The notes: generated by a model from the sequence alone, not told the origin. Positions 81-48,185 are shown, counted from the stretch's first letter. The stretch: DNA of 51,009 bases from Candidatus Muproteobacteria bacterium RIFCSPHIGHO2_12_FULL_60_33 (GCA_001785195.1 MFTB01000089.1:1-51009), one strand, 5' to 3'. Numbers and translations are program-made.

Positions 81-165
81 AGTAGCAAGTAGCAAGTTTC
101 AAGTTGCAAGATTGTAATATCTACCGCTAACTACTTGCCACTTGTTACTTGCTACTTGATACTTC
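81..165. repeat. Inverted repeat of ~7-nt units (AGCAAGT/TTCAAGT) between speE and speA
   Basis: Left arm 81-110 agtagcaagtagcaagtttcaagttgcaag matches the reverse complement of the right arm (about 132-164) at 26/30 positions. Confidence 0.85.
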
Positions 166-170
166 GTTCC

Positions 171-2063
171 ATGATCGGCTGGTCCATACAAAAGGCACGC
201 GACACCTACAACATCGCCCACTGGAGCGGCGGCTACTTCGACATCAACGGCAAGGGCCACCTCGTCTGCCGCCCGGACGCCCGTATCGAGCATCCCGGCA
301 TCGATATGTTCGAACTTTCCCGCGAGATCAAGGCCGTGGGCCTGTCGCTGCCGGTGCTGGTGCGCTTCTCCGACATCCTGCGCCACCGCGTCGAGACCCT
401 GTGCGGCGCCTTCGACCGCGCGATGCAGGCCGACGCTTACCGCGGCCACTACACCTCGGTCTACCCGATCAAGGTCAACCAGCAGAAAAGCGTGGTCGAG
501 AAAATCCTCGCGCGCGACGACGGCCGCGTCGGGCTCGAGGCCGGCTCCAAGCCCGAGCTGCTGGCGGTGCTGGCGCTGTCGCGCCAGGACGGCGGCGTGG
601 TGGTGTGCAACGGCTACAAGGACCGCGAGTACATCCGCCTCGCCCTAATCGGCAAGGAGCTGGGGCATCGCGTGTACATTGTCGTGGAAAAGCCCTCGGA
701 ACTCGATCTCGTCATCCAGGAATCCAAAAATCTGGGCGTGACGCCGCTGATCGGGCTGCGCATGCGGCTGGCCTCGATCGGCGCCGGCAAATGGCAAAAC
801 ACCGGCGGCGAAAAATCCAAGTTCGGCCTGTCGGCCTCGCAGGTGCTGGACGCCATCGCGCGCCTGCGCGCGGCGAACCTGCTGCCTTCGCTTCAGATGA
901 TGCACTTTCACATGGGTTCGCAGATCGCCAACATCCAGGACATTCAACTCGGCATGCGCGAGGCGGCGCGCTACTATGCCGAGTTCCGCGCCAACGGCGC
1001 CGACATCAAGGTGCTTAACGTCGGTGGCGGGCTGGGCGTGGATTACGAAGGCACGCGCTCGCGCAGTTTCTGTTCCATGAACTACAGCGTCGAGGAGTAC
1101 GCGCACAACATCGTGCACGCGCTCACCAAAATCTGCGCCGAGAAGAAGTTGTCCCATCCCGACATCGTGACCGAATCGGGCCGCGCCATGACCGCGCACC
1201 ATGCGGTGCTGGTGACCAACGTGGTGGACACCGAATCCGCCCCGGGCGCGGATTCGGTGCCGAAGGCGACGGACAACGAACCCGCGATCATCCGCGACCT
1301 GTGGCAGACGTTCGCGACACTTTCAGACCGCTCCATCGTCGAGGCCTATCACGACGCCGCCTACCGCCTGACCGAAGCCCAAGGCATGTTCAGTCACGGG
1401 GTGCTGACGCTGGCGCAGCGGGCGCGCGCCGAGCAGATTTATTTCGCCATCTGCTGGAAGGTGCGCGAGCTGTTGCAGCCCGCGAGCCGCACGCACCGCG
1501 AGATTCTCGACGAGCTGAACGAGAAGCTCGCGGACAAGTATTTCTGCAATTTCTCCCTGTTCCAGTCCATGCCCGACGCCTGGGCCATCGATCAGATTTT
1601 TCCGGTGGCGCCGCTCAATCGCCTGAACGAGCCGCCCACGCGCCGCGCGGTGCTGCAGGACATCACCTGCGATTCGGACGGGCGCCTGGACCTGTACGTG
1701 GACGGCGAGGGCATCGACTCGACGCTGCCGCTGCATCCGCTGCGCGAAAACGAACCCTATTTACTGGGAATTTTTCTTGTCGGCGCTTACCAGGAGATTC
1801 TCGGCGACATGCACAACCTGTTCGGCGATACCGATTCGATTCACGTCGAGCTGAAGCCGGACGGCGGCTATCAGTTGTCACAACCGCAGCAGGGAGACAC
1901 GGTGGATTCGGTGCTGCGTTACGTCCATTTCAATGCCGACGATCTGCTCGCGTCCTACCGCGCGAAGATCGAGCGCGCTACTTCGATCAGCGCGAAAAAC
2001 CGCGACACCTATCTCGCCGAGCTGTCGGAAGGATTAAAGGGATATACGTATCTGGAGGATTAA
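171..2063 (+). CDS. speA: Biosynthetic arginine decarboxylase
   Basis: Protein contains YPIKVNQQ, GLEAGSKPELLAVLAL, VCNGYKDREYIRLALIG, GGEKSKFGLS, FSLFQSMPDAWAIDQIFP; start taken at MIGWSIQKARDTYNI. Confidence 0.93.
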   Translation: MIGWSIQKARDTYNIAHWSGGYFDINGKGHLVCRPDARIEHPGIDMFELSREIKAVGLSLPVLVRFSDILRHRVETLCGAFDRAMQADAYRGHYTSVYPIKVNQQKSVVEKILARDDGRVGLEAGSKPELLAVLALSRQDGGVVVCNGYKDREYIRLALIGKELGHRVYIVVEKPSELDLVIQESKNLGVTPLIGLRMRLASIGAGKWQNTGGEKSKFGLSASQVLDAIARLRAANLLPSLQMMHFHMGSQIANIQDIQLGMREAARYYAEFRANGADIKVLNVGGGLGVDYEGTRSRSFCSMNYSVEEYAHNIVHALTKICAEKKLSHPDIVTESGRAMTAHHAVLVTNVVDTESAPGADSVPKATDNEPAIIRDLWQTFATLSDRSIVEAYHDAAYRLTEAQGMFSHGVLTLAQRARAEQIYFAICWKVRELLQPASRTHREILDELNEKLADKYFCNFSLFQSMPDAWAIDQIFPVAPLNRLNEPPTRRAVLQDITCDSDGRLDLYVDGEGIDSTLPLHPLRENEPYLLGIFLVGAYQEILGDMHNLFGDTDSIHVELKPDGGYQLSQPQQGDTVDSVLRYVHFNADDLLASYRAKIERATSISAKNRDTYLAELSEGLKGYTYLED

Positions 2064-2183
2064 AGCGGTTTCCTACTCGGTATGCGTGTGAACCTCAGAT
2101 CGGGGCGGGAATGAGCAATCGAGCCTGACACTGTTGACTCTCCAGGTTTCGCCACATACCTCATCAGCGGAATATGAACCGGC

Positions 2184-2220
2184 ATCCCTCCCGGATTCCG
2201 CTTCACTCCATCTGGGCTAC
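2184..2220. repeat. Half-copy of a palindromic repeat (CCCGGATTCCGCTTCACTCCATCTGGGCTAC)
   Basis: Similar to right arm of palindromic element at 48088-48119 (CCCGGATTTCGCTGCGCTCCGTCGGGCTAC). Confidence 0.55.
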
Positions 2221-2237
2221 GATTTCTTGTGATCGGC

Positions 2238-2738
2238 TCACTTTGAGTACGGGCCCAAGAAACGGCTGCCATTGAAGTGGATAAGATGCGTCGGTGCGTC
2301 GGCGCTCCACACTTCTGTTTCCCACGCAATCATGGATAGATATTTCCGCATGACTTCGCCACGGCTTGGGAAGGCTGTGACATAAACGAGCCCTGCGGTC
2401 GAGTTACTGAACAACTCGGATAACTCGGTATGTCTGCGCCCATCTACCGGTCCACTGCTTGTTACTGCCTCGGCCAGAATCAACCAATTCTTCTCGCGGA
2501 AATAAATCACCACGTCCGGCATTTTTCCGTGCTGGCCGACGCCGACACGTAGTGACTTGAGAAGGGCTCGATCAAAGTATCCCCATTTGCTGCCTGTGTC
2601 ACCCACGTATATGAGCTCGCCATTCGGAACAAAGCGAGGCGAGAACTCTTCGAGACTCGCGCGAATGAGTTCGGAATGTTCACCTGCGCTCAGGGTGATG
2701 GTCTCTCCGTCTTTGATCCGGACGGGGATTCTGGCCAT
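2238..2738 (-). pseudogene. C-terminal catalytic fragment of a BsuBI/PstI-type restriction endonuclease, no partner methylase
   Basis: GDTGSKWGYFDRALLKSLRVGVGQHGKMPDVVIYFREKNWLILAEAVTSSGPVDGRRHTELSELF...TAGLVYVTAFPSR...KYLSMIAWETEVWSADAPTHLIHFNGSRFLGPY matches the BsuBI/PstI RE C-terminal domain; frame stays open upstream (LADKYARHRD) without an N-terminal domain. Confidence 0.78.
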
Positions 2739-2783
2739 GTCGCGATGGCGCGCATATTTATCGGCCAGCGTCTGATGCCCGGA

Positions 2784-2826
2784 AGAGATAAAGGGGATAA
2801 GAGATAAAGGGGACGCTACCCTTTCT
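2784..2826. repeat. REP-like hairpin with tandem AGAGATAAAGGGGA
   Basis: AGAGATAAAGGGGA at 2784-2797 and 2800-2813, followed by AAAGGG-gacgcta-CCCTTT. Confidence 0.5.
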
Positions 2827-2846
2827 TCCTGATTGAACCAGGCGCT

Positions 2847-3740
2847 CTATTTCGCCTGCTTCAGTCGCGCGAGTAACTGCGTCTTCATCGTGTCGGGCAT
2901 GCCGAGAAAGTTGGTCTTCACCATCCCGAGCAAGGCCTGCTTGTTGTCCTTGTCCCAGCCGCGAAATTCGGCGGCCATGGTTTCGACGTATTCGCTGCGC
3001 TCCGCTTCGGGCATCTTCGCGAACGTGGCGCGCGCTTCGTCGAGATTTTTCTGCATGTCGCGCATCGAACCCAGCATCATGCGCAGTACCCCGCCGCCCA
3101 TGGGCGAGTCCGAGGCCTGCTGCAGCACCGTCTTCAATTCTCCCGGTTTGCACTGGGGCGCGGCGGAAGGCATCGCGGTCGCCATCCGTTCCAGCAGCGT
3201 AGCGAGTTCATCGACTTCGGCACTGGTCAGCGGCGGGCTATCCTGCATGGCCTGCATGGCCGTCGCCATGTCCGGCACGGCGCCCGGCGACCCGGGACTT
3301 TCTTTGTCCTGAACGTCAGCGCCGTGCTCTGCTTGTTCTTTCGCCATCATCGCCTGAGCCTGCGCCATCTGCTCTTTCATCATCCCTTCCATGCCCGGCG
3401 GTATAGCCATGCCGCCGCCCACACCGGGCATGGAAGGGAGCGTGCCTTTAGCCGCGCCGGCAGCACCCGAGAGAGGCATCTTGCCCGCGCCCCGCATCGA
3501 CGAAAGGCCAGGCATTGCCCCGCGCCCGCCCAGCATGCCGGCTAACCCGCCCGCGCCTGGGCCTGCGATCGGCAAGCCGCACGGTCCGGCACTCGCGAGC
3601 ATTTTGTCAATCTGTCCTTCGACGAAGCTCCTGACGATGCCCTTCACGAGGTCCTTGGCGATGAACGCGAGCGGCCCGATGGCCTGGGCAGGAAGGGAGA
3701 GCAAGGTCACCCACAGGAAGTATCCGGCAATGCGCTTCAT
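2847..3740 (-). CDS. Secreted Met/Gly/Pro-rich hypothetical protein
   Basis: Signal peptide MKRIAGYFLWVTLLSLPAQA; low-complexity PGMEGMMKEQMAQAQAMMAKEQ segment; helical C-terminus. Confidence 0.65.
   Translation of the reverse strand: MKRIAGYFLWVTLLSLPAQAIGPLAFIAKDLVKGIVRSFVEGQIDKMLASAGPCGLPIAGPGAGGLAGMLGGRGAMPGLSSMRGAGKMPLSGAAGAAKGTLPSMPGVGGGMAIPPGMEGMMKEQMAQAQAMMAKEQAEHGADVQDKESPGSPGAVPDMATAMQAMQDSPPLTSAEVDELATLLERMATAMPSAAPQCKPGELKTVLQQASDSPMGGGVLRMMLGSMRDMQKNLDEARATFAKMPEAERSEYVETMAAEFRGWDKDNKQALLGMVKTNFLGMPDTMKTQLLARLKQAK
3384..3438. repeat. 15-bp perfect inverted repeat inside the 2847-3740 CDS
   Basis: cccttccatgcccgg (3384-3398) / ccgggcatggaaggg (3424-3438). Confidence 0.85.
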
Positions 3741-3909
3741 GGTTCCTCCTCAGCGGACTTTGTGAAGGACGCGGCATTATCGGTGTAGTTAGGATGGCGC
3801 GTCGAATTTCCCAGTATACAGAGCGACGCGAAAAATAGCGGTGGACGGCCGTACCGTCCGGGAAACAGGCCGCCATTTCAACGAAATCGACAGGGCCAGA
3901 CTTAAGCAA

Positions 3910-4482
3910 TTATCCCGCCTCGCCCTTTTTGACTTTCAACCGAATCGCCTTGATGCCCAGCTTCTGTAACTGGACGGCGGTGGCGTCGAGCTGCTCGATT
4001 TTTTCGTAGGGGCCGAGGCGCACGCGGTGATACTCGCCCTTGCCCTCGATGGTGATTTTCTGGATCTGCGCCACCAAGCCCGATAGCGCGAGCTTGGCCT
4101 TCATCTGATCGGCTTCTTCAAAACCCGCGAAGGAACCTGCTTGCAGGATGTAACTGACACCCTCTTCCGGTTTAGCCTTGGCGGCCTTGGTCTTGCTGCG
4201 CCACTCCGGTAGCACGGTCTCGGTTTCCGGGAGAATGGTGTAGAAATCGAATTTCGGCTTGGGGAGTTTCGCCGGTTCCGGTTCTTTTTTGACGGCAACT
4301 TTTTGCGCCGGTTTGCTGAAACTGGAAAACAGATTCGCCAATCCGCCGCGGCCGTCGCCACGATGCGAATACATCTGCCACAGCATCACGCCGGCCACGC
4401 CGATGCCGATGCCGACTACAAGCAGCAGCCAGCCGGGTTTGCGAAAACGGCTTCTCGAAGATCTTCGGCGCGCCTGTGCCAT
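3910..4482 (-). CDS. SPOR-domain inner membrane protein (FtsN-like)
   Basis: Single TM helix LLLVVGIGIGVAGVML then C-terminal SPOR motif YILQAGSFAGFEEADQMKAKLALSGL...YHRVRLGPYEK. Confidence 0.85.
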   Translation of the reverse strand: MAQARRRSSRSRFRKPGWLLLVVGIGIGVAGVMLWQMYSHRGDGRGGLANLFSSFSKPAQKVAVKKEPEPAKLPKPKFDFYTILPETETVLPEWRSKTKAAKAKPEEGVSYILQAGSFAGFEEADQMKAKLALSGLVAQIQKITIEGKGEYHRVRLGPYEKIEQLDATAVQLQKLGIKAIRLKVKKGEAG

Positions 4483-4494
4483 GAAAGCTATTTA

Positions 4495-4591
4495 GCCACA
4501 GAGTGCACAGAGAACACAGAGGGATATGGGGAAAAAATCATTTCCATTTTATAGCTGTGATTTTCTCGGTGTCCTCTGTGATCTCTGTGGC
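4495..4591. repeat. CACAGAG-family inverted repeat
   Basis: gccacagagtgcacagagaacacagag / ctcggtgtcctctgtgatctctgtggc, 23/27 complementary. Confidence 0.85.
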
Positions 4592-4596
4592 AGGTT

Positions 4597-6447
4597 TTAC
4601 ATACTTTCCGGGGCCGACACACCCAGCAGTTTCAGTCCGTTCGCAATCACCTGACGCGTGGCCACGATCAGGTTGAGGCGTGCATCGCGCACCGCGGCGT
4701 CCTCGACCAGAAAGGTATGCGCGCCGTAATAGGTATGAAAGTCATAGGCGAGTTCGCGCAGGTAGTACGCCAGCTGATGCGGCTCGTGGACCTGTGCCGC
4801 CGCTTCCAGCACTTCCGGATAGCGCGCCAGCCGCTGAATCAGCGCCAGCTCATGCGGTTCCGTCAGGCGCGCCAGGTGGCGGTCGCCGTTCGCCGGATCG
4901 TGACGGAAGCCTTTTTCCTTCATCTGCCGGAAAACACTGTAGATGCGCGCATGCGCATACTGCACGTAAAACACCGGATTATCGTTGGACTGTGACTTGG
5001 CCAGATCGAGGTCGAAGTCCATGTGCTGCTCGCACCTGCGCAGCACGTAGAAAAACCGCGCGGCGTCATTGCCGACCTCGCGCCGCAGCTCGCGCAGCGT
5101 GACGAACTCGCCGCTGCGGGTGGACATCTGCATGCGTTCGCCGCCTTTATAAAGGATGGCGAATTGCACCAGCAGCACGTGCAGCCGCTCCGGATCGTCA
5201 CCGATGGCGGCGAGCGCCGCCTTGACGCGCGGGACGTAACCGTGGTGATCCGCGCCCCAGATGTCGATCACCTGGTCGTAGCCGCGCTCGAGCTTGTCCA
5301 TGTGGTAGGCGATGTCGTGGGCGAAATAGGTCTTCTGGCCGTTCTCGCGCACCACGACGCGGTCTTTTTCATCGCCGTAGTCGGTGGAGCGGAACCACAG
5401 CGCGCCCTCTTTTTCGTACACGTGGCCGGATTTCTTCAGTCGCTCGATGGCGCGTTCGGCGGCGGTCGCTCCCGACGTCCTGTCTCCCGCGACACTTGCA
5501 CTTCCCTGTGTATCGCCGGGTTCTATTAGTGAACGCTCGGAAAACCACTGATCGTAAGTGACGCCGAACTCTTCCAGGTCCTGGCGGATGTCGTCGAGGA
5601 TGACCTGAAGCCCGAGGTCGAAGACCTTGCGATAAGCCGCGGTACCGAGCAGGGATTTGGCGCGCTCGATCAGCGCGTCGATATGGGTTTCCTTGTCGCC
5701 GCCTTGGGGTTCGTCGGGTGGAATGTTTTCAAATATTTTGGCGGACGCGTGACGATACTTGTCGCCATTCTCCCGGTGCAGGGTCGCGCCGATGTCGTAG
5801 ACATAATCGCCCTTGTAGCCGTTCACCGGGAAGTCAAACCTCTCTCCGCACAGTTCCAGGTAGCGCAGCCACACGCTGGTGGCGAGGATGTCCATCTGCC
5901 GGCCGGCATCGTTGATGTAGTACTCGCGGTGCACCTGGAAGCCGACGGCATCGAGCAGGTTCGCCAGCGTCGCTCCATAGGCCGCGCCACGCCCGTGGCC
6001 GACGTGCAATGGGCCGGTGGGATTGGCCGATACAAATTCCACCTGCACCTTGCGCCCCGCGCCCATTTGACTGCGGCCGAAGGTCTCGCGCTTTTCAAGA
6101 ATTTCACGCACCACGGTGTGATAGGCATCGGCGCTCAGGAAAAAATTGATGAATCCCGGACCGGCGATTTCGACCTTGACGATCTTTTCAGACGCGGGCA
6201 AGGCCTTGACGATTTTTTCGGCCAGTTCGCGCGGTTTGACGCGCGCGTGCTTGGCGAGCACCAAGGCGATGTTGCACGCGAAGTCGCCGTGCCCCTTGGT
6301 CTTGGTGTGATCAATGGTGATGGTCGCGCCGTGGTTCAGCGGCAGCGCGCCGGTGGCCTCGAGGCCGGCGAGCGCTGAGGCGATCAGATTTTCGATGTGG
6401 TGCTTCAAGGGATGTCCGAAATTGTTTGTAGTCTCTGCGTCTGGCAT
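4597..6447 (-). CDS. argS: Arginyl-tRNA synthetase
   Basis: [62 protein letters not shown]-like and C-terminal anticodon-binding region. Confidence 0.97.
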
Positions 6448-6464
6448 TTAGCCCTCACCCCTTG

Positions 6465-6490
6465 CCCTCTCCCGCGTTTGCGGGAGAGGG
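6465..6490. repeat. 11-bp perfect hairpin CCCTCTCCCGC-GTTT-GCGGGAGAGGG
   Basis: Direct reading; lies in argS leader. Confidence 0.85.
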
Positions 6491-6500
6491 GGAGTCGGTT

Positions 6501-6536
6501 GGCTTCAAGCCGGTAATCTTATTTCGGCTTGAAGCC
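6501..6536. repeat. 12-bp perfect hairpin GGCTTCAAGCCG-N12-CGGCTTGAAGCC
   Basis: Direct reading; second hairpin in argS leader / 3' end of upstream gene. Confidence 0.85.
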
Positions 6537-6597
6537 AGAGACATTGACCGGACGCCGATTCTACCGGCCCGGCGGGGGCGCGAGAAGCCGTGACCGG

Positions 6598-7254
6598 TTA
6601 CGGTTCGGCCGCCTCACTCATCAGATTTTCCACTTCCCGCAGATTGGCCCGTTTCATCGGCTTGCCATCCACCGGGCTCAACGGCGGTTCGCGCGCCTCA
6701 CGCCGGTCGAATATGCACAGTTCAATCGGAACATTATCGGCGGTGAAGCGGTATGCCGGGAACGATTCCTGGCGGTCGCCGCCAAAGCGCAGGCGGCGGT
6801 CCGTCTGTTCGTAAGGGATGCTGTGCTCCTGCAACCAGAAACCTATTTCCTCCGAAAAGTCAGCGGTGAGATGGATCTCAATCGCGCTGGCCGAGGTGAC
6901 GGTCCCGCTCAATACCGGTCCCACCAGACGCGGATCGAACTTGGACAGAAAGCGCATGGCCTCGGCGGCGAGTTCGCGCAGCCGGCGTACACTTTGGGTG
7001 AGACGTCCTCCATGAAACAGCCGCAGGTATTCCTGCAACGCGGAATCCACCTCGTCATTGCCCGGCAGATGCTTGGTCTCGGGCAGCCCCAGGCGCGCCG
7101 CCGCCTTGCGCTTGGCGGTCTGGAAATCGCGCACGCCCTCCTCCGCCATGATGCGCGCGGCATCTGTCGCGATGTGCTGGCGCAGCTCATCTGAGCCCGG
7201 CGAGTTTGGTTTGGGTCGGTGCCCGACCTGGGAAGAGCGGGGTTTGCGGCGCAT
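6598..7254 (-). CDS. Conserved hypothetical protein, possibly degenerate nucleotidyltransferase-like
   Basis: ORF abutting mrcA; RIMAEEGVRDFQTAKRKAAARLG N-terminus; GTVTSASAIEIHLTAD loosely resembles a nucleotidyltransferase motif. Confidence 0.7.
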   Translation of the reverse strand: MRRKPRSSQVGHRPKPNSPGSDELRQHIATDAARIMAEEGVRDFQTAKRKAAARLGLPETKHLPGNDEVDSALQEYLRLFHGGRLTQSVRRLRELAAEAMRFLSKFDPRLVGPVLSGTVTSASAIEIHLTADFSEEIGFWLQEHSIPYEQTDRRLRFGGDRQESFPAYRFTADNVPIELCIFDRREAREPPLSPVDGKPMKRANLREVENLMSEAAEP

Positions 7255-9755: not shown

Positions 9756-9908
9756 GACTTGTGGAAATTTGTGTCAGGGAGCGTCCGGAATCCGGCGCGT
9801 CGCAGAGTATAAACCACAGTCTGTCAGACACGGTATTTATGCACGCGTGGCCCCGTTTCCCGGTAAAAATCTGCTGAAAAACCCATAAAACGCGGCAAAT
9901 TCAACAAT

Positions 9909-9938
9909 TTGTCATTTCTGAATTCTATGGTCTATATT
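9909..9938 (+). promoter_or_regulatory. Candidate sigma70 promoter for pilM operon
   Basis: TTGTCA (9909-9914) - 18 nt - TATATT (9933-9938), about 70 bp upstream of pilM. Confidence 0.35.
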
Positions 9939-10006
9939 TGGTTTTAGCATTTAATCTACATTTAGATGTATCAATCATAACCCATGGATTTAGAGAGGAA
10001 AATAAA

Positions 10007-12278: not shown

Positions 12279-12280
12279 CC

Positions 12281-17196: not shown

Positions 17197-17474
17197 ATGG
17201 ACAGGATTAACAGGGAGAGCCGGAAACAGACGAAGACACTTAACGTGTCTTCGTCCCGGCGAGCGCCCCGCCACGGATGGCGGGGCCGAGTGTGTCGAAG
17301 TTTTTGTGGCCACGCCAAGGACGGCAGGCAGGCCCTCCCTGGCGTCGCCATAGCCGCCTCGGTTCAGCCCGGCCCGCACTTCCGTGTGCGGGCGCTCAGC
17401 GGCGCCGATGCACGTTAAGTGCATCGGCGACAAACCCCGCTTCGCCCTGTTAATCCTGTGAATCTTGTCGATTT
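17197..17474. repeat. Composite element: ACAGGATTAACAGGG inverted termini enclosing a chain of hairpins
   Basis: Outer arms 17200-17214 and 17445-17459; hairpins 17229-17255, 17265-17286, 17403-17429. Confidence 0.75.
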
Positions 17475-24868: not shown

Positions 24869-24875
24869 GAATTTT

Positions 24876-25031
24876 TGACGCGAAGGCGCAAAGACGCAAA
24901 GATTTTCAGTCTCGAATTATTCCATTAAACCCAAGCGTCTGCGGAAAGTTTCTCTTGCGAGCACCTTAAGCGCAGTGGCGCAAAGGCTTTCGATTCGAAT
25001 CTTTCTTTGCGTCTTAACGTCTTTGCGTCAG
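24876..25031. repeat. GCAAAGACGCAAAG-family inverted repeat
   Basis: tgacgcgaaggcgcaaagacgcaaaga (24876 on) / tctttgcgtcttaacgtctttgcgtcag (to 25031), with an additional degenerate unit at 24971-24986. Confidence 0.8.
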
Positions 25032-25039
25032 AAACTCAT

Positions 25040-32258: not shown

Positions 32259-32339
32259 TTCAACGCCAAGGCGCAAAGGGCGCAAAGAAAAACCCGGGAA
32301 AATAACTGAAAAAATCTTTGCGTCTTTGCGTCGAAAATT
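32259..32339. repeat. GCAAAGACGCAAAG-family inverted repeat
   Basis: caacgccaaggcgcaaagggcgcaaagaaaa / aaaatctttgcgtctttgcgtcgaaaatt. Confidence 0.8.
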
Positions 32340-32356
32340 AATAAATCAGAGTTTCC

Positions 32357-32802: not shown

Positions 32803-33057
32803 TAGACAGGATTCACAGGATTAACAAAATTTTTTATTCACAAGATTTTTAATCCTGACAATTCTGTCTGGAACAGAATTGGACGGCCGAAGGCCGCCCG
32901 CCGGGTGTACGCCAGGGGCGAGGTGGACAAGAAGACGGTCCGGGGGATCGTCTTCCCGCCGAGCGGGCCGCCAGGGATGGCGGCCCTGGACTTTCGAGCG
33001 CCGCGGGACGCAAAGCGAGAAAGGCGTGCATCAAAATCCTGTTAATCCTGTCCGTTC
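32803..33057. repeat. Composite element: GACAGGATT[A/C]ACAGGATT inverted termini enclosing hairpins
   Basis: Left arm 32805-32821, right arm 33034-33052; hairpins 32931-32955 and 32965-32986. Confidence 0.75.
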
Positions 33058-34443: not shown

Positions 34444-34452
34444 GTCATCCCC

Positions 34453-36764: not shown

Positions 36765-36780
36765 TAGCGGGGGCGCCGTC

Positions 36781-39167: not shown

Positions 39168-39170
39168 ACG

Positions 39171-39878: not shown

Positions 39879-39898
39879 CGAGGAAGAATTTTATGCGG

Positions 39899-40777
39899 TC
39901 ATCGCAACTCGCTCAGGAGCGAATCCATCATGCGCTCCGCCTGCGAACCGTAGCCGCCGCCGAAGAGATTGAAATGGTTGAGAATGTGGTAGAGGTTGTA
40001 CAGCGTCTTACGCGCCTTGTAACCGGCATCGAGCGGCCAGGTATCCTGATACGCCTGATAAAACCGCGTGGAAAATCCGCCGAATAATTCCGTCATCGCG
40101 ATATCCGCTTCACGGTCGCCGTAATAGACCGCGGGGTCGAAGATCACCGGCTGCTGTTCCACCGCGCCGACGTTGCCGCCCCACAGATCGCCATGCAACA
40201 GCGACGGCGCGGGCCGGTAGGTGCGGAAAAAACCTCCCAGCTCCGCCATCAGCCGCTCGCCCTTGCGCATCAGGTCATGGCCGTTGCGCATGGCGAGCCT
40301 GAGCTGGAAGCCGAGACGGTGTTCGCGCCAGAACTCCACCCAGTCGGCGCAGGGCGTGTTGATCTGCGGTGTCGAACCGATGGTGTTGTCCATACTCCAG
40401 CCGAATTGATCGCGCGTGGCACGATGCATCTGCGCCAGTTCCCGCCCGAGCTGTTCGAGGCTGCGCGCATCCGCACCTTCCAGATCGAGATATTCGAGCG
40501 CGAGGTAGGCCGAACCGTCGGCCGTGCCGGAACATACCGGCTGCGGCACGCGCACGCTGCGCGTCTGCGCGATTTCCTTCAGACCCTCGGCTTCGGCCTC
40601 GAACATGGCCAGGCGCGCCGTGTCATTGAGCTTGACGAAGTAACGGCGGTTGCCGTCCGTGAGAACCGTGGCGGAGTTGATGCACCCGCCGCCGACAGAC
40701 TGCCGTGACCGAATGGCGAAGGGAGCGCCGGTGGTTGCGGAAATGTGCTGTGCGATCGCTGCCCAGGTTGTATCCAT
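39899..40777 (-). CDS. Fructosamine kinase family protein
   Basis: GGCINSATVLTDGNRRYFVKLN, PSLLHGDLWGGNVG, FDPAVYYGDREADIAMTELFGGF; start set at MDTTWAAIAQHI. Confidence 0.9.
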   Translation of the reverse strand: MDTTWAAIAQHISATTGAPFAIRSRQSVGGGCINSATVLTDGNRRYFVKLNDTARLAMFEAEAEGLKEIAQTRSVRVPQPVCSGTADGSAYLALEYLDLEGADARSLEQLGRELAQMHRATRDQFGWSMDNTIGSTPQINTPCADWVEFWREHRLGFQLRLAMRNGHDLMRKGERLMAELGGFFRTYRPAPSLLHGDLWGGNVGAVEQQPVIFDPAVYYGDREADIAMTELFGGFSTRFYQAYQDTWPLDAGYKARKTLYNLYHILNHFNLFGGGYGSQAERMMDSLLSELR

Positions 40778-40993
40778 TCCCCCGCCTCCCTCATCCGAGA
40801 CGGGTAATGTAGGACCAATCCCCGGAGGCGAGAAGCCCGTTTTGGTCTGGCGCGGCGCCGGAAAATGACACCCCTCATGACCGAATAACAGCCAGGCCCT
40901 GCCGTTGATCCCGGGGCCTGCAAAAAATCGCGAAAAAGGCCTTATTTCCCCCATTATTTTTCGTAAACCGCTGATTTTATGGATGCCGATAAG

Positions 40994-41009
40994 TGGCACT
41001 GGATTTGCA
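40994..41009 (+). promoter_or_regulatory. Consensus sigma-54 promoter
   Basis: TGGCAC-TGGAT-TTGCA, full match to TGGCACN5TTGCW, 172 bp upstream of GGDEF-EAL start. Confidence 0.75.
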
Positions 41010-41180
41010 AGATTTACCGGCCGCCAGCGTGTTGGCGCCACGGGAAGGTCAGCGCCGGGCGGCACAGGGACAGGGAAATACCAGGAGGTTATCAAGGTTC
41101 CAATGGAACGGGAACGACCACGAACGGATTCGCATCGGCGTTTATTCGTCTTCAGTCGTCTTTGGCGATTAAGAATAACG

Positions 41181-43544
41181 ATGCTGTTTAATCAGTTATC
41201 CATGCGTATGAGCCTCACCGTCGCCGTGATGGTGGTGGGATTGCTCGGCATGTTTTTTGTGCTCGCGAGCGGCGACATCTACCGCGACGTGAGCCTGGCG
41301 CAGCAGCGCGTCGCGCTCGGCGAACAGGTCAAGACGCGGCTCAGCGACCTGCGCCGGGAACTGGATGCGGAATCGCAGCGGTTTGTCCTGTTGGCTCGCG
41401 CGGAACCCGGGTTGACGAACTCGGTGGAAGGCGGGAAGACATCCGCCGTCGTGCGCCATCTCGACCGGGTTTTCGACCGTCCCGGTTTCGCCTCCACCCG
41501 CACCAGGCTGGCCAAGCTTCAGGTGCTGAATGCAGATATGAATGTGCTGGCCTCCTCCGGCAAGGGCGTCCCCGAGGCCGTCCTGAATCATCCCGCGTGC
41601 GCGAACCTGCGCGCCGCGGCGGCCAAGCGCAAAGACGCGGAGCGTCAGAAGCCCGTGACCGGCGTCTGCGTAGAGGAGAAAAATATTTATCACCTGCTGA
41701 TTCATTCCCTGGGCAAACGCCCAGCGTCCGGTTTTCTGCTGGTCGCGACGGACATGACCCCGCGGTTGACCGGGGCCGACAACATTTTCAACCTGCCCGT
41801 GCGCCTGAGCTTTCCCGACGGGGCCTTGCTGTTCCGCTCCGCCAACTGGCCACGCGACGATGAAACAGAAAGTTATCTGGTGGCGGAACAGCCCTTCGGC
41901 ATGGCGTCCCGCCCGGTGATCCATGTCGGTGTCAGCCAGGACATCCGGATATTCAGCGACGGGTTGGCGCTCACCCGGTACAACATTGCGGCTGTTGCCG
42001 CCTCCGCGATTCTGCTGGTCGCCCTGCTCGTGTGGTTTGCGCTGCAGAAGACCGCCATCAAACCGCTGCGGACACTGGCCGCCCAGCTGCGCAAGGCCCG
42101 TTCCGACAAGAGTCATCTCGGCGAGCATGTGGTGGTAAGCGGCTGCGCCGAGGCTGTCGAACTGGGCGCCGCCTTCAACAGCATAACGACGCGGCTCAAG
42201 GAACTTCATGAAAGCCTGGAAAGCCTCGCCTTCACCGATCCGCTGACGAAGCTGCCGAACCGCACGTTGTTCCACGAGCGCCTGGGACACGCCATCGAGG
42301 ACGCCAAGCGCGATTACAAGCCCTTCGCTCTGATGCTGATGGATCTCGATCGCTTCAAGGATATCAACGATACCCTGGGTCACCAGGTCGGCGACCTGCT
42401 GTTGCAACAGGTGGCGGCGCGCCTGCGCAGCAAACTGCGCGATATCGACACGGTGGCGCGCATGGGTGGCGACGAGTTCGCGATTCTGCTGCCGGCAGTC
42501 AACGACAAACACGCCACCATGGCGGCGCGCATGCTGCTCCAGGTCTTGCGCGCGCCGTTCCGCATCGAGGAGCAGAGCCTGGACATTGGCGCGAGCATCG
42601 GCATTGCGCTCTATCCCGATCATGGCGTGGACGCCAACATTCTCATCCAGCGCGCGGATGTGGCCATGTATGCCGCCAAACACGCCAACAGCGGCCATGC
42701 CTTCTACGACAGCACGCAAGACCAGCACAACCCGACGCGGCTGACGTTGCTCGGTGAACTGCGCCATGCCGTGGAACAGGAGCAGTTCGTGCTTTACTTC
42801 CAGCCCAAGGTGAATTTGAAGACTTCCCAGGTCACGGGTGTGGAGGCGCTGATACGCTGGAACCATCCGCGCCAGGACCTGATGCTGCCGGACACCTTCA
42901 TTCCGCTGCTCGAGCAGACCGGCATGATTCGCAGCCTGACGCCTTGGGTGCTGAACGAGTCCCTGCGCCAGGGCCAGCAGCTCCAGGACCAGGGGCTGCC
43001 CATCAGCATTTCCATGAATCTGTCGGTGCGCGACCTGCAGGACCCGTATCTGGCGGATTCCTTTGCCGAGCAACTGGCGGCGCTTCAGATTTCGCCGCGC
43101 TGGCTGGAGCTGGAGATTACTGAAAGCGCGGTAATGACCGAGCCGGAGCGCGCCCTCGAGGTGCTTGCGCGCCTGTCCGCGATGGGGCTAAGAATCGCGA
43201 TCGACGATTTCGGCACCGGCTATTCCTCACTTTCTTATCTGAAAAAGCTGCCGGTCAATACCATCAAGATCGACAAGTCGTTTGTCATCGGCATGGGGCG
43301 CGACGAAAACGACGCGGCCATCGTGCGCACCAGTGTCGATCTGGCACACAACCTCAAGCTCGAGGTCGTGGCCGAAGGCGTCGAAAACGAGGAAACCCTC
43401 AACCGCCTGGGCGAGCTGGGCTGCGACACCGCGCAGGGGCACTACATCAGCCGCCCACTGTCGGCGGAAGAACTGTCGGTCTGGCTTAACCAGTCTTCCT
43501 GGGCGCTCAGGCGCAACCCCAAACTGTTACGCCTGCATAAGTAA
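41181..43544 (+). CDS. Membrane HAMP-GGDEF-EAL cyclic-di-GMP protein
   Basis: N-terminal TM, periplasmic region, second TM/HAMP, RDID...GGDEF, EALIRWNHP, DDFGTGYSSLSYLKKLPVNTIKIDKSFV. Confidence 0.94.
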   Translation: MLFNQLSMRMSLTVAVMVVGLLGMFFVLASGDIYRDVSLAQQRVALGEQVKTRLSDLRRELDAESQRFVLLARAEPGLTNSVEGGKTSAVVRHLDRVFDRPGFASTRTRLAKLQVLNADMNVLASSGKGVPEAVLNHPACANLRAAAAKRKDAERQKPVTGVCVEEKNIYHLLIHSLGKRPASGFLLVATDMTPRLTGADNIFNLPVRLSFPDGALLFRSANWPRDDETESYLVAEQPFGMASRPVIHVGVSQDIRIFSDGLALTRYNIAAVAASAILLVALLVWFALQKTAIKPLRTLAAQLRKARSDKSHLGEHVVVSGCAEAVELGAAFNSITTRLKELHESLESLAFTDPLTKLPNRTLFHERLGHAIEDAKRDYKPFALMLMDLDRFKDINDTLGHQVGDLLLQQVAARLRSKLRDIDTVARMGGDEFAILLPAVNDKHATMAARMLLQVLRAPFRIEEQSLDIGASIGIALYPDHGVDANILIQRADVAMYAAKHANSGHAFYDSTQDQHNPTRLTLLGELRHAVEQEQFVLYFQPKVNLKTSQVTGVEALIRWNHPRQDLMLPDTFIPLLEQTGMIRSLTPWVLNESLRQGQQLQDQGLPISISMNLSVRDLQDPYLADSFAEQLAALQISPRWLELEITESAVMTEPERALEVLARLSAMGLRIAIDDFGTGYSSLSYLKKLPVNTIKIDKSFVIGMGRDENDAAIVRTSVDLAHNLKLEVVAEGVENEETLNRLGELGCDTAQGHYISRPLSAEELSVWLNQSSWALRRNPKLLRLHK

Positions 43545-43618
43545 GTGGGCTCTCCATATCCGCGGAAATTTATCTCCGCGCGCGGCAGCCTGCATCCGCT
43601 TTCCGTTTCCGAATCCCG

Positions 43619-44047
43619 CTAACAGTTATCTTTGCCCAAACTGTAGGCGCCGGGCCCCTGCGCGACGATAAACAGCAGCGCGCCCATGATCGCCAGGTTT
43701 TTCTGGAACTGGATGAACTGCATCTGCATCTGATCCGGTGGCAGTCCCCAGTAGGCGTGAAAGAGTAAAGTCACCGGGATCATCCACAGGAAAATAATCG
43801 TGGCGGCCCAGCGCGCCTGCCAGCCGACCAGGATCATCAGGCCGCCGCCGAGTTCGATGGCGATCGTCAGAACCAGCATGAGCTTGATCAGATTGGGATC
43901 GAGGCTCGGCATCTTGGCGGCCATGTATTCTGCCGCACCTACAAAACCGGTGATCTTCTTGAAGCCGGCGACGATGAACAGATTCGACAGCAGCAGGCGC
44001 CCGATCAGCGGCCCGTATTGCTGTGCCCATTTGCATGCACCCTTCAT
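43619..44047 (-). CDS. DoxX family membrane protein
   Basis: GRLLLSNLFIVAGFKKITGF, ELGGGLMILVGWQARWAA; four TM segments. Confidence 0.88.
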   Translation of the reverse strand: MKGACKWAQQYGPLIGRLLLSNLFIVAGFKKITGFVGAAEYMAAKMPSLDPNLIKLMLVLTIAIELGGGLMILVGWQARWAATIIFLWMIPVTLLFHAYWGLPPDQMQMQFIQFQKNLAIMGALLFIVAQGPGAYSLGKDNC

Positions 44048-44139
44048 GTTTCATCCTCCTGTTCCATGGTGTCCCGCCGCATCGTAAACGTTGTTTTACC
44101 CGATGCCTAGCCGATCTACAGGCATTTTGGCGCTGGAAA

Positions 44140-44241
44140 ATGCCTCCGGTTGTCTACTTTATGCACAGCGAAAATGCGCCGGAAAAAGACCCGGAGCATG
44201 CGGCCAAAAATTTCTCGATAAAGCCGGGTGATTTTATTTAA
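44140..44241 (+). other. Candidate 33-aa small ORF (MPPVVYFMHSENAPEKDPEHAAKNFSIKPGDFI)
   Basis: Complete ATG-TAA frame in the DoxX-priA divergent intergenic region. Confidence 0.25.
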
Positions 44242-44350
44242 CGTATTGATCTTAAAACATTTAACGCGTCAGTTTATTTTTTAATCAAACTAACAGAATT
44301 GCCGGAAATTGCCGTGCGACAAAGCGCGTACCACGGCTTCATCAACATTG

Positions 44351-44359
44351 TTATCCACA
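44351..44359 (+). promoter_or_regulatory. Consensus DnaA box TTATCCACA
   Basis: Exact 9-mer upstream of priA. Confidence 0.4.
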
Positions 44360-44509
44360 GATTCTGTGAGTAACGTTCGCGCCTTTTAGATACAAGCGCT
44401 TAGAGGCAAGTCATGACAAACCTGTGAGCGTGGAGCACGGGTGTTTCACGTATTGCACATAAAGTGTTCAAAAAATTTCGTTCCATGGCCTTGTGATAGA
44501 GTCGCCGCC

Positions 44510-46708
44510 ATGTCCGCTGCGCCGCGAATTTACCAAGTGGCAGTACCCACCCCTTTGTATCGCGCGTTTGATTATCTGGCCACCGTGTCACTGGTGCCGG
44601 GGGCGCGCGTGCAGGTGCCGTTCGGTCGCCGGGAAATGATCGGCGTCGTGCTCGGTGAGGTGGCGCAAAGTGAGCTGCCAGCCAGCCGCTTGAAGGCCAT
44701 CACGCAACCGCTGGATGCCGGCGCCATACTCCCACCGCCGATACTGGCTCTGCTTCGATGGGCGGCGGATTATTATCATCATCCTCTCGGCGAAGTCATT
44801 CACACCGCCCTGCCGGTGCGCTTACGCAAGGGCCGCGCGCCGGTCGTCGGTGGGGTGAAGGTGTGGATGCTCACCCATGAGGGAAAGGCCGTGGATCCGC
44901 AGACGCTGAAACGCGCCCCGGCGCAAAAGCATATGCTCGAGGCGCTGGCGGCGGCCGCGGAAGGTCTCAACGCGGAGCAGCTGGCAAAAGTCTCGCAGCG
45001 CTCGGCGGCGGCACTCAAGGCGCTGCGCAGCAAAGGGTGGGTGAGCAGTCACCAACGTGACTCGCCGCCTGTTACGAACGGGAATTTGCCGTCCGCGCCG
45101 GAACTCAATCCGGGCCAGAAGTCCGCCGTGACCGCCATCGTTGCCAAGTTGGATGGCTTCCACCCCTTCCTGTTGCACGGAGTCACCGGCAGCGGCAAGA
45201 CCGAGGTTTACCTGAATGTGATCGAACAGGTGCTGGCACAGGGAAGGCAGGCGCTGGTACTGGTGCCGGAAATCAGCCTGACGCCCCAACTGGTTGTCCG
45301 CTTCGAGCGGCGCTTCCGTGCGCCGATTGCGGTGCTGCATTCCGGGCTCAACGAACAGGAGCGCCTGAGTGCCTGGGTCAGGGCCAGCGCAGGCAGGGCG
45401 CCCATTGTGCTCGGCACGCGCTCCGCCGTGTTTACGCCGCTCAAAAATACTGGTGTCATCGTGGTGGATGAAGAGCACGATGCTTCGTATAAACAACAGG
45501 ACGGATTTCGCTATTCGGCACGGGACGTGGCGGTGATGCGCGCCGCGCGCGAAAAAATACCCATCATCCTGGGTTCCGCGACACCTTCGCTGGAGAGCCT
45601 CAAGAACGCGCGTCAGAGAACCTATACGCTGATCGAATTGCCGGAACGCACCGGCAGCGCCGTCATGCCGCAGGTGCGGCTGCTCGACATGCGCCGGCTC
45701 AAGCCGAGCGAAGGACTCTCGTTGCCGCTGCGCGAGGCGCTCGCGGACAGGCTCAAAAAGGGCGAGCAGAGCATCCTGTTCCTGAACCGCCGCGGTTTTT
45801 CCCCGGTGTGGATGTGTTTTGACTGCGGCTGGGTGGCTCCCTGCAAGCGTTGCGACGCCCAACTCACGCTGCACCAGAAAAAACAGAAACTGCTGTGTCA
45901 TCATTGCGGCGCGGAACAGGAAGTGGCGCAGCGTTGCCCGTCCTGCCGGGGCGAGAACCTGCATCCGCTCGGCGAGGGCACGGAAAGAGTGGAGGGCGCG
46001 CTGGAAAAGTTTTTCCCGCAGGCGCGCATCGAACGCATCGACCGCGATAGCACCGCGCGCCGCGGCGCGCTCGAGGAAAAATTACGGCGCGTCCACGAGG
46101 GCGAGGCCGATATCCTGGTCGGGACCCAGATGCTCTCCAAGGGGCACGATTTCCCCAATGTCACGCTGGTCGGAATCCTGAACGCCGATCAAGGACTGTA
46201 CGGAACCGATTTTCGTTCGAGTGAACGGTTGTTCCAGCTGATCATGCAGGTGAGCGGCCGCGCCGGGCGCGCGGACAAACCGGGCGAGGTACTGATCCAG
46301 ACCTGGCATCCGGACCATCCGTTGTTCGCCGCGTTACAGCGGCACGACTTCCACGGCTTCGCCGAGTTTGCGCTCAACGAACGCCGCGAGACCGGCTACC
46401 CGCCCTACAGCCATCTGGCGTTGCTGCGCGCCGAGTCGCCCACGCCCGGCGCGGCGCTCGAATTTCTGCAGGAAGCGCGCACGCTGGCCGTGCGACTGTC
46501 GCCCGGGGAAGGCGTACAGATTTTGCAGCCGATGGCGGCGCCCATGGAGCGGCGTGCCGGGCGCTATCGCGCGCAACTGCTGGTGCAATCCAATCAGCGT
46601 GCGCCGCTGCACGAATTTCTAGGTCAATGGGTAAGGCAGTTGGCCGAGGCGAAGTTCAGTAAAAAAGTGCGTTGGTCACTCGATGTCGATCCCGCGGAGA
46701 TGTATTGA
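44510..46708 (+). CDS. priA: Primosomal protein N' (replication restart helicase PriA)
   Basis: LLHGVTGSGKTEVYLNVIEQ, DEEHDASYKQ, zinc cysteines CFDCGWVAPCKRCDAQL, GTQMLSKGHDFPNVTLV. Confidence 0.96.
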   Translation: MSAAPRIYQVAVPTPLYRAFDYLATVSLVPGARVQVPFGRREMIGVVLGEVAQSELPASRLKAITQPLDAGAILPPPILALLRWAADYYHHPLGEVIHTALPVRLRKGRAPVVGGVKVWMLTHEGKAVDPQTLKRAPAQKHMLEALAAAAEGLNAEQLAKVSQRSAAALKALRSKGWVSSHQRDSPPVTNGNLPSAPELNPGQKSAVTAIVAKLDGFHPFLLHGVTGSGKTEVYLNVIEQVLAQGRQALVLVPEISLTPQLVVRFERRFRAPIAVLHSGLNEQERLSAWVRASAGRAPIVLGTRSAVFTPLKNTGVIVVDEEHDASYKQQDGFRYSARDVAVMRAAREKIPIILGSATPSLESLKNARQRTYTLIELPERTGSAVMPQVRLLDMRRLKPSEGLSLPLREALADRLKKGEQSILFLNRRGFSPVWMCFDCGWVAPCKRCDAQLTLHQKKQKLLCHHCGAEQEVAQRCPSCRGENLHPLGEGTERVEGALEKFFPQARIERIDRDSTARRGALEEKLRRVHEGEADILVGTQMLSKGHDFPNVTLVGILNADQGLYGTDFRSSERLFQLIMQVSGRAGRADKPGEVLIQTWHPDHPLFAALQRHDFHGFAEFALNERRETGYPPYSHLALLRAESPTPGAALEFLQEARTLAVRLSPGEGVQILQPMAAPMERRAGRYRAQLLVQSNQRAPLHEFLGQWVRQLAEAKFSKKVRWSLDVDPAEMY

Positions 46709-46714
46709 TTCAAT

Positions 46715-46808
46715 GCCACAGAGGTCACAGAGAACACAGAGTGAAAAACCAAAATTTCCAACGAATGGCCTTAAATTGTTTCTCGGTGATCTCTGTGTGC
46801 TCTGTGGC
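46715..46808. repeat. CACAGAG-family inverted repeat
   Basis: gccacagaggtcacagagaacacagag / ctcggtgatctctgtgtgctctgtggc, 23/27 complementary; left arm 25/27 identical to 4495 copy. Confidence 0.85.
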
Positions 46809-46816
46809 AATAAATC

Positions 46817-47890
46817 TTAGTGCGGGATGGCCTCGAAGATTTTCTGGCCGTTGTCGTCATTGAGCAGGCGGTAAACGCGCCATGCCGTATCCTTACCGGT
46901 CCGACATGCACCGTAGCGAAACGGCATGATCCTCCCCGCCAGGGCAAAGCGCAGATCGTTGAACCACACGCACAGACCGTCTTTGATGTGATCCACGCGG
47001 TACAGCGCCGGAAACAGGGCAAAACCCCGATAGGCCGCCAGGGCCTCCGAGTACCATACCTGTTCCGCCAGCTTGGCGTCCTTCCCCAGGCCGAAACGTG
47101 GCGCCTGTTTCCACAGGGCATCCCGCACCGGGTAGTACGAGGCATGCACCTGACGCAGCCAATTGGCGTCCTCCGGGGGGAATTCCGGAATCTCATTGCG
47201 CCACAGACTCACATAGGACATGTAATACGAATCCTTTTGCGGAATAACGATCATCCAGTGGAATGGCGAGAAGGGTTGGGGAATGGCCTCGACCGTTGCT
47301 CCCTCAAGCTGATGCCGCGCGGCGTAGGCCTCGCCCACCGCGACCGCGCGTTGGTGCAGGATTCCCTGAATACCCACGTAGGCGGCCAGCACGGCCAGAC
47401 CGATGACGGCGGGTTTGCGCGCAAGGTTCCACACCGCCGAGGCAATGAGTCCCGCCACGATGATCGCCGTGAAGTAGGGATCAATGATAAAGGTCGTCGG
47501 AATCTGTGCGCGCCAGGTGGAAAACGGCGCGAAGATCATGGTGCCGAAGGCGGTGATCACGTCGCCGACGATATGGATGCCGATGCCCAGCGCCACCACA
47601 CCTGCGAACGCGCGCCAGGAATATTTTCCGCGCACCAGCAGCATGAACAGCAGCGACAGACCCAGCGCCCACAGCGGCAGCATGATCACGGAATGCGTGA
47701 CGCCGCGGTGCACGGTGAGATAGGTCAGGGGATCGATGAAGCGCGTGATGAAATCGCTGTCGGGAAACGCCGCGCCCCAGAAGCCAACCCACAGGCGCGC
47801 GCGTCGCGGCAACTGACCCGGTCGCGGGTCTTTCGGTTCCGTCGCGCGCGCCAGCAGCGCGCCGGAGAGCGCATGGGTCAGTGTGTCCAT
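46817..47890 (-). CDS. Membrane-bound metal-dependent hydrolase (YdjM/DUF457-like)
   Basis: MDTLTHALSGALLARA, HRGVTHSVIMLPLWALGLS, VVALGIGIHIVGDVITAFGTMIFAPFS. Confidence 0.88.
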   Translation of the reverse strand: MDTLTHALSGALLARATEPKDPRPGQLPRRARLWVGFWGAAFPDSDFITRFIDPLTYLTVHRGVTHSVIMLPLWALGLSLLFMLLVRGKYSWRAFAGVVALGIGIHIVGDVITAFGTMIFAPFSTWRAQIPTTFIIDPYFTAIIVAGLIASAVWNLARKPAVIGLAVLAAYVGIQGILHQRAVAVGEAYAARHQLEGATVEAIPQPFSPFHWMIVIPQKDSYYMSYVSLWRNEIPEFPPEDANWLRQVHASYYPVRDALWKQAPRFGLGKDAKLAEQVWYSEALAAYRGFALFPALYRVDHIKDGLCVWFNDLRFALAGRIMPFRYGACRTGKDTAWRVYRLLNDDNGQKIFEAIPH

Positions 47891-47938
47891 GTTATCGATT
47901 GAAGTATATCGCTACGTGTCTCGAACTTATCTCAAAAA

Positions 47939-48185
47939 ATTTTTGAAACCACAGATGATCGCAGATAGAAAAAGCGAATGGGTTCTTTATCTGTGTTAAT
48001 CCGTGCCCACCTGTGGTTCCTAAGCAAGCATGTAGCCCGCATGCAGCGCCAGCGGAGTGCGGGGGAATTCTGCGCCGGTAGGCCTCACCCCCGGATTTCG
48101 CTGCGCTCCGTCGGGCTACCTCCATGAATCCGTCACGGGTTAATCGTTATTAGCGTTTATCCACGTTCATCTGAGGTTTCAAAAT
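47939..48185. repeat. CACAGATGA-family repeat, outer arms TTTTGAAACC[A/T]CAGATGA, interrupted by nested palindrome
   Basis: tttttgaaaccacagatga near 47940 and tcatctgaggtttcaaaat near 48168 are reverse complements with ~2 mismatches. Confidence 0.75.
48031..48119. mobile_element. Palindromic MITE/REP-like element, GTAGCCCGC...GTCGGGCTAC
   Basis: gtagcccgcatgcagcgccagcggagtgcggggg / cccccggatttcgctgcgctccgtcgggctac imperfect inverted arms. Confidence 0.6.

What the first reader, a model, noticed from the sequence alone, without database searches (positions are those of the whole stretch)
81..48185. Convergent architecture: five unrelated families of 'unit-built' inverted repeats at gene boundaries
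At least eight intergenic loci (81-165, 4495-4591, 17197-17474, 24876-25031, 32259-32339, 32803-33057, 46715-46808, 47939-48185) carry long imperfect inverted repeats. Each arm consists of 2-4 near-tandem units of 7-10 nt: AGCAAGT; CACAGAG(AA); ACAGGATTA; GCAAAGAC; CACAGATGA-type. The unit sequences are unrelated between families, but the design is shared (direct units inside arms, 10-100+ nt variable loop, strictly intergenic). I know of no named element class with this definition, though similar strings are familiar from environmental genomes. One mechanism generating several sequence families is inference.
Basis: partly seen in the sequence, partly recalled or inferred. Interest (0 to 1): 0.78.

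Follow-up and report, generated by a model that had tools for sequence, protein, structure and literature searches.

The report
Mobile unit-built hairpins between genes
Between many genes of this uncultured bacterium sit small hairpins whose arms are rows of short repeated "bricks"; several brick families share one design, most look like copies of small mobile DNA pieces lodged just behind stop codons, and at least one family demonstrably jumps.

Summary
All eight loci hold inverted repeats built of 7-10-nt units (0 of 300 shuffles reach any of them). The families are multi-copy, with at least seven unit types in this genome. Of 286 unit arrays, 282 lie outside genes. Copy number varies strongly by lineage: 0 to 382 ACAGGATT matches per congener. 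It is not one clean class. (1) The GCAAAG/GCAGAG branch contains a true MITE: ends GGAANNTCTGATT, perfect 4-bp target duplication in all 16 distinct copies scored, some nested inside other hairpins. (2) ACAGGATT arms are the ends of a ~255-nt composite copied at unrelated sites. (3) Other families show no target duplication and no linked transposase. Congeners show empty sites of -4 to 14 nt, different families in the same slot, and one inverted loop. The two arms are consistently non-identical (A-arm/B-arm), which speaks for copying of an asymmetric element and against fold-back duplication. Hairpins sit a median 9 nt after a stop codon and avoid divergent gaps. The same architecture with other units was described in Geobacter metallireducens (2009) as putative regulator-binding sites, so this is a new variant of a known but unnamed kind. 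The mobiliser of most families is unknown.

The parts
81..163 (.). AGCAAGT-unit hairpin upstream of speA (arms 81-110 and 134-163)
   Evidence: 87-nt span folds with z -6.8; element near-identical in congener G008, different units in G005
4495..4591 (.). CACAGAG-unit hairpin between argS and the next gene (arms 4495-4521, 4565-4591)
   Evidence: empty 9-nt spacer in G002, G007, G008, a GTTCAAG/GTACAGG hairpin in G005
17199..17469 (+). Composite: ACAGGATT arms around about 225 nt of GC-rich palindromes; copied at many unrelated sites
   Evidence: homology starts and ends within the arms; gene junction overlaps (-1 to -4 nt) in G001, G002, G003, G007, G008
24869..25037 (.). GCAAAG-unit hairpin after gltD, with a 101-nt loop
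   Evidence: the orthologous slot holds GCAAAG, GCCAAG or AGCTGA hairpins in congeners, loop inverted between G005 and G007
32262..32332 (.). GCAAAG-unit hairpin of the MITE branch (arms 32262-32288 and 32315-32332)
   Evidence: loop shared with other MITE copies
32339..32356 (-). Right terminal inverted repeat GGAAACTCTGATTTATTA of the GCAAAG MITE; left TIR missing here
   Evidence: 16 of 16 distinct two-ended copies elsewhere have 4-bp TSDs
32804..33052 (.). ACAGGATT arms 32804-32827, 32846-32869 and 33035-33052, with a GC-rich insert between the second and third
   Evidence: no hairpin in the orthologous gap of G005, G007, G001
46714..46809 (.). CACAGAG-unit hairpin between priA and the convergent ydjM-like gene (arms 46714-46741, 46782-46809)
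   Evidence: orthologous and interrupted in G005, ACAGGATT hairpin in G007, 33-nt gap without hairpin in G001
47947..48186 (.). CACAGATG-unit hairpin (about 47947-48018) with a REP pair and a further outer arm (about 48158-48186)
   Evidence: absent from the orthologous gap of G005 and G007

Best explanation
The loci are copies of small non-coding mobile elements whose brick-built arms are the element ends. Several families with different bricks have amplified. One branch (GCAAAG/GCAGAG with ends GGAANNTCTGATT) is a MITE moved in trans by a transposase that duplicates 4 bp (shown: duplications; inferred: the enzyme, probably IS5-like because of the YTAR-like site). For ACAGGATT, the arms bound a composite that is copied to unrelated places (shown), by an unidentified activity that leaves no recognisable target duplication (inferred; perhaps one acting on single-stranded hairpins). 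The other families are assigned by analogy of design, copy number, arm polarity and empty sites (inferred). Copies survive, or are aimed, at gene junctions just after stop codons; slots are reused by different families, loops can invert, and elements insert into one another. Once lodged, the hairpin probably acts as a 3'-end element (mRNA stability or translation termination, as reported for REPs near stop codons); this last step is inference.
For: 16/16 distinct TIR copies with perfect 4-bp TSDs, several nested in other hairpins; loop homology between copies; composite with arm-bounded homology and unrelated flanks; 15 of 21 hairpin-bearing orthologous gaps lack it in another congener, empty gaps down to -4..14 nt; 0-382 copies per congener and none in 36 gaps of G001; conserved A/B arm polarity in both gene orientations; 282:4 intergenic bias; divergent gaps depleted, p=5e-4, and 59% of hairpins in residual gaps <=50 nt that hold 5.8% of comparable spacer DNA.
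Against: No TSD and no mobiliser for the non-TIR families; their loops are mostly unique, so recent copying is shown only for subsets; no autonomous partner of the MITE found; slot co-occupancy could partly be vertical inheritance with in-place unit change.
Confidence: 0.68

Rival explanations
1. Paired binding sites for a nucleoid or global regulator protein (IHF/HU-like), as proposed for the look-alike elements of Geobacter metallireducens; tandem units give cooperative binding and the hairpin is incidental.
For: Tandem units in register, short conserved unit, same design in Geobacter described that way (PMC2700814).
Against: Divergent (promoter) gaps are depleted; presence/absence and family change between congeners at the same junction fit a regulon poorly; copies with TSDs. 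Does not exclude binding in addition to mobility.
Confidence: 0.12
2. Transcription terminators or mRNA 3'-end hairpins kept by selection, which diverge in sequence but not in shape.
For: Strong predicted folds (z -4.3 to -11), position just after stop codons, depletion in divergent gaps.
Against: Loops of 20-40 nt and no unit hairpin among the terminator-like sites scanned in 32-51 kb; many lie between co-directional genes <=20 nt from the next start; mismatches show no preference for G-U over A-C on the mRNA strand (84 against 74); orientation is random; empty sites exist.
Confidence: 0.1
3. REPIN-like elements mobilised by a Y1 tyrosine transposase (RAYT).
For: No TSD in most families, hairpin form, extragenic, 3'-end bias; Y1 genes are frequent in hairpin-bearing relatives.
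Against: None of the 31 Y1 loci examined has unit arms on both sides; the G008 one is flanked instead by an inverted GGCGCGTGATACGCG repeat. G015 has no detectable Y1 but about 100 ACAGGATT matches. Unit arms lack the GTAG/CGTC tag and the 20-40 bp REP size.
Confidence: 0.05
4. Mutational origin: slippage expands a short unit and template switching copies it in inverse orientation, without transposition.
For: Tandem units and quasi-palindromes are classical slippage and template-switch products (general knowledge).
Against: Facing spacers are mismatched, the opposite of a fold-back copy (6-10% identical against 27-31% for swapped arms); the same units recur in other phyla; TSDs.
Confidence: 0.05

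Closest known systems
Geobacter metallireducens 'predicted global regulator binding sites' classes 1-3, and multicopy sequences of G. bemidjiensis (PMC2700814, PMC2996986)
   Same: Tandem 7-9-nt units (GTTGCTYN, TCTCCGTS, MTYCTGA) in pairs on opposite strands at variable distance, multi-copy; IS elements nearby; multicopy sequences in 12% of gaps in G. bemidjiensis
   Different: Other unit sequences and copy sets; read there as IHF/HU sites; no TSDs, empty sites, composites or arm polarity reported in the text read here
MITEs (review PMC10969869)
   Same: Below 500 bp, inverted ends, intergenic, stem-loop; GCAAAG/GCAGAG branch has 4-bp TSDs
   Different: Long arms made of short tandem units; most families without TSD or known parent IS
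REP/REPIN/BIME with RAYT (PMC3733652, PMC3116915, PMC12306157)
   Same: Extragenic palindromes, inverted pairs, near stop codons
   Different: No GTAG/CGTC tag, no single 20-40 bp palindrome, no unit-flanked RAYT
BrickBuilt MITE of Porphyromonas gingivalis (PMC4596501)
   Same: Intergenic MITE containing tandem bricks
   Different: 23-nt bricks without spacers in the body, small inverted ends, reported from P. gingivalis only
TAACTGA repeats of Beggiatoaceae (PMC4679880)
   Same: Intergenic tandem heptamers with patchy spread across phyla
   Different: Direct arrays, almost never inverted, mostly just before start codons

Membership tests
MITE (GCAAAG/GCAGAG branch with GGAANNTCTGATT ends) | Terminal inverted repeats | tested here: met
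   16 distinct two-ended copies of 121-199 bp
MITE (GCAAAG/GCAGAG branch with GGAANNTCTGATT ends) | Target-site duplication | tested here: met
   Perfect 4 bp in 16 of 16 distinct copies (TTAA, TTAG, CATA, CTTG)
MITE (GCAAAG/GCAGAG branch with GGAANNTCTGATT ends) | Parent IS with the same ends | tested here: inconclusive
   No IS-sized pair of ends around a transposase in G000, G005, G006, G007; G000 is 79% complete
MITE (ACAGGATT, CGCAGAT, AGCAAGT, CGCCARG families) | Target-site duplication | tested here: not met
   No enriched direct repeat of 2-9 nt at offsets 0-15
MITE (ACAGGATT family) | Inverted ends bound a copied unit at unrelated sites | tested here: met
   Composite copies
REP/REPIN with RAYT | GTAG or CGTC tagged palindrome of 20-40 bp | tested here: not met
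   Unit arms
REP/REPIN with RAYT | RAYT gene flanked by the repeat | tested here: not met
   31 Y1 loci; G015 lacks Y1
Geobacter paired tandem-unit sites | Tandem 7-9-nt units in pairs on opposite strands, variable distance, multi-copy | tested here: met
   definition from PMC2700814
Geobacter paired tandem-unit sites | Same unit sequences | not tested
   Class consensuses resemble AGCAAGT (GTTGCTYN reversed) and CACAGAG (TCTCCGTS reversed) by eye only
Geobacter paired tandem-unit sites | Binding by IHF/HU | not testable with these tools
   Proposed, not shown, in the paper
Intrinsic terminator | GC-rich stem, short loop, T tract | tested here: not met
   Scan of 32-51 kb lists no unit hairpin; loops are longer than the scan allows
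BrickBuilt | 23-nt bricks without spacers | tested here: not met
   Units are 7-10 nt with 1-3-nt spacers

The most novel reading that the evidence does not exclude
One widespread, still unidentified hairpin-handling machinery recognises the architecture (brick period, mismatched spacers, two non-identical arms) rather than a fixed sequence. It places such hairpins directly behind stop codons, and so sustains many brick 'dialects' in unrelated phyla.
Probability: 0.12. Interest if true: 0.9.

Novelty: new variant of a known kind. Interest (0 to 1): 0.6.

Why it matters
Up to about a third of the sampled gene junctions of this genome, and about one in seven of the congener stretches chosen by synteny, carry a strong inverted repeat; in the window's genome most of these belong to these unnamed families. 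Congeners differ from none to hundreds of copies. The material gives empty sites, slot turnover and arm-bounded composites, so the mobiliser can be hunted by gene presence/absence. It also shows how tightly packed operons can be opened by non-coding DNA without breaking genes.

Tried and rejected
Y1/RAYT linkage: flanks of 31 Y1 loci and the copy-number comparison give no support. TSD search for non-TIR families: none. RNA-strand pairing (G-U against A-C): no bias. Fold-back duplication: contradicted by mismatched spacers. An independent 'spacers must mismatch' rule: after orienting elements by arm type the ACAGGATT effect is fully explained by inherited asymmetry, the other two only partly, and in Chloroflexi the arms are mostly symmetric, so I do not claim it. 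Autonomous IS for the MITE: only a false pair around tsf. Phage or plasmid vectors for the ACAGGATT element: no phage and one short plasmid hit; units occur in 13 (ACAGGATT) and 60 (GCAAAG) IMG/VR contigs, hosts not examined. Rfam: nothing in the window. Literature by sequence: nothing, then one irrelevant hit.

Full report
What was claimed. Eight intergenic loci carry long imperfect inverted repeats built from short tandem units of several unrelated families sharing one design.

Is it there? Yes. The arms are at the stated places and each stem beats 300 of 300 dinucleotide shuffles of its own spacer. In the MAG that holds the window (G000, 1.86 Mb, 79% complete) every family is multi-copy while reversed-pattern controls give 0-1. 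In 752 kb of that MAG, 118 of 375 intergenic gaps have a stem score >=28, none of the shuffled gaps and none of the length-matched coding segments. These stretches were picked for hits, so the rate is an upper value; congener stretches picked by synteny give 17/122 and 11/75, of which the recognised unit families make up 9 and 7.

How many families? Besides the five named: CGCCAGG/CGCCAAG, CGTGAAT/CGTAAGT, and in congeners GTTCAAG and AGCTGAT. Some are one-base relatives of each other. The main units carry a C-A-purine-purine core on the strand that runs towards the loop in the left arm; this was noticed by eye and not tested.

Anatomy. Typical arms have 2-4 units and a median loop of 20-40 nt. 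In the three large families the units are in register between the two arms more often than between swapped arms (46 against 23% and 66 against 40%, p<0.002; 50 against 24%, p=0.004), while the spacers that face each other are identical far less often (10, 6 and 6% against 28, 31 and 27%; p<=0.001). The cause is mainly a conserved difference between an A-arm and a B-arm: 15 of 16 scorable CGCAGAT hairpins have one TGAA-arm and one TGGA-arm, 7 in one and 6 in the other orientation to gene direction among co-directional cases. An inherited polarity inserted at random orientation is what copying of an asymmetric element would give; fold-back duplication would give identical arms. In Chloroflexi the ACAGGATT arms are mostly symmetric, so this is a lineage property. 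Mismatches show no G-U preference on the mRNA strand (84 G-U, 74 A-C).

Mobility, branch 1. Copies with ends GGAANNTCTGATT/AATCAGANNTTCC around GCAAAG or GCAGAG hairpins have perfect 4-bp direct repeats outside the ends in all 16 distinct cases (TTAA, TTAG, CATA, CTTG; a seventeenth row is an overlapping mis-paired call). Several sit inside ACAGGATT or CGCAGAT hairpins; at C75:17114-17303, for example, the insert splits a TTAA within an ACAGGATT arm. G000 has 50 end matches, three congeners 1, 9 and 3. This is a MITE; the YTAR-like target points to an IS5-type enzyme (inference from known IS families). Window locus 32262-32356 is a truncated member that keeps one end.

Mobility, branch 2. The window's 17199-17469 locus is a composite of ACAGGATT arms around about 225 nt of GC-rich palindromes. 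Full-length copies (86-97% identical) occur at three other places in G000 and at several in G005, G006 and G007; in the alignment, homology starts and stops within the arms and the flanks are unrelated. The arms are thus the ends of a copied unit. No target duplication was found for the non-TIR families, and none was evident by eye around the composite copies.

Comparison of orthologous junctions. Of 117 orthologous gaps, 21 hold a unit hairpin in at least one congener; in 15 of them another congener has none, the empty gap being in several cases only -4 to 14 nt. Different families share a slot, for example CACAGAG (G000) and ACAGGATT (G007) after priA, GCCAAG (G005) and CACAGAT (G007) at another junction, and GCAAAG, GCCAAG and AGCTGA types after gltD. 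Co-occupancy of slots exceeds independence (p=1.5e-4, 6.7e-4), partly through vertical inheritance. At the gltD slot the loop is inverted between G005 and G007 (alignment score 36 against a shuffle maximum of 19). ACAGGATT matches per congener range from 0 (G001) to 382 (G006), and G001 has 0 of 36 gaps with such stems.

Position. Co-directional hairpins lie a median 9 nt after the upstream stop and 20.5 nt before the next start. 50 of 79 have a stop codon within 15 nt. Divergent gaps are depleted (5/102 against 148/843, p=5e-4). 59% lie in residual gaps <=50 nt, which hold 5.8% of comparable spacer DNA. Whether this is targeting or survival cannot be told here. REPs placed fewer than 16 nt from a stop lower translation (reported in PMC12306157), which suggests a testable effect.

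What mobilises the rest? Not shown. Y1 transposases of relatives are not flanked on both sides by unit arms, and G015 has none detected but about 100 ACAGGATT matches.

Spread. The exact 3+3 ACAGGATT hairpin exists in a Muproteobacterium, another gammaproteobacterium, Chloroflexi and Verrucomicrobia/Opitutae. A GCAAAG hairpin is in 8 of 185 genomes of the class, in seven families.

What is known. The architecture was described in G. metallireducens as paired 'global regulator binding sites' of 7-9-nt units on opposite strands at variable distance, with IS elements at fixed distance from some (PMC2700814), and similar multicopy sequences occupy 12% of gaps in G. bemidjiensis (PMC2996986). No name or mechanism was established there, as far as read; the supplementary alignments could not be opened. 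New here: proof of transposition for one branch, arm-bounded composites, empty sites, slot turnover, arm polarity, and recurrence of the same unit across phyla.

Limits.

Noticed in passing
window 48032-48119; C24:3901-3989: Inverted pair of GTAGCCCG-type REPs (REPIN-like) inside the larger CACAGATG-unit locus; a second pair elsewhere in the MAG.
   Followed up: no
window 17237-17421: The cargo of the composite is a string of GC-rich palindromes with ANGGA-like apical sequences (ACGGA, AAGGA), reminiscent of CsrA/RsmA-binding hairpins; function untested.
   Followed up: no
L264 (G008:C131:49788-50135): A 196-aa Y1 transposase (RAYT-like) flanked by inverted GGCGCGTGATACGCG repeats, the same palindrome as the GTAGGGCGCGTATCACGCGCC pair at G000 C94:7431-7508: a likely REPtron of this genus.
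   Followed up: partly
G000 C11:7625-7728, C12:7991-8185, C57:8243-8367, C112:12335-12464: CCCTCTCCC-type inverted repeats, resembling Geobacter 'class 4' sites (CCYTC units) said to be common in many genomes.
   Followed up: no
G000 C12:4394, C106:7095, C112:1854, C112:7956, C80:9392: A further dispersed inverted repeat, (G/A)TTATTGACCCGGCACG, without tandem units.
   Followed up: no
L135-L160 (Anaerolineales HSG25 contigs): Many near-identical copies of a mostly symmetric ACAGGATT hairpin with an 11-nt loop and conserved outer flanks TAAAACAATATCTG...CAAAAAATGCTTTT, apparently a recently amplified version in Chloroflexi.
   Followed up: partly
L013 (G000 C113 near 9500); G005 locus G: A short repeat GACGAACGAGCGCAGCGAGTAGGGCTTC, tandemly repeated in one case, sits inside the right half of CACAGAG hairpins.
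   Followed up: no
G005:C1:1917343-1917416 and G000 C13:1765-1821: GCAAAG hairpin with a loop identical in two species whose genes are only about 80-90% identical; orthology or transfer not checked.
   Followed up: no
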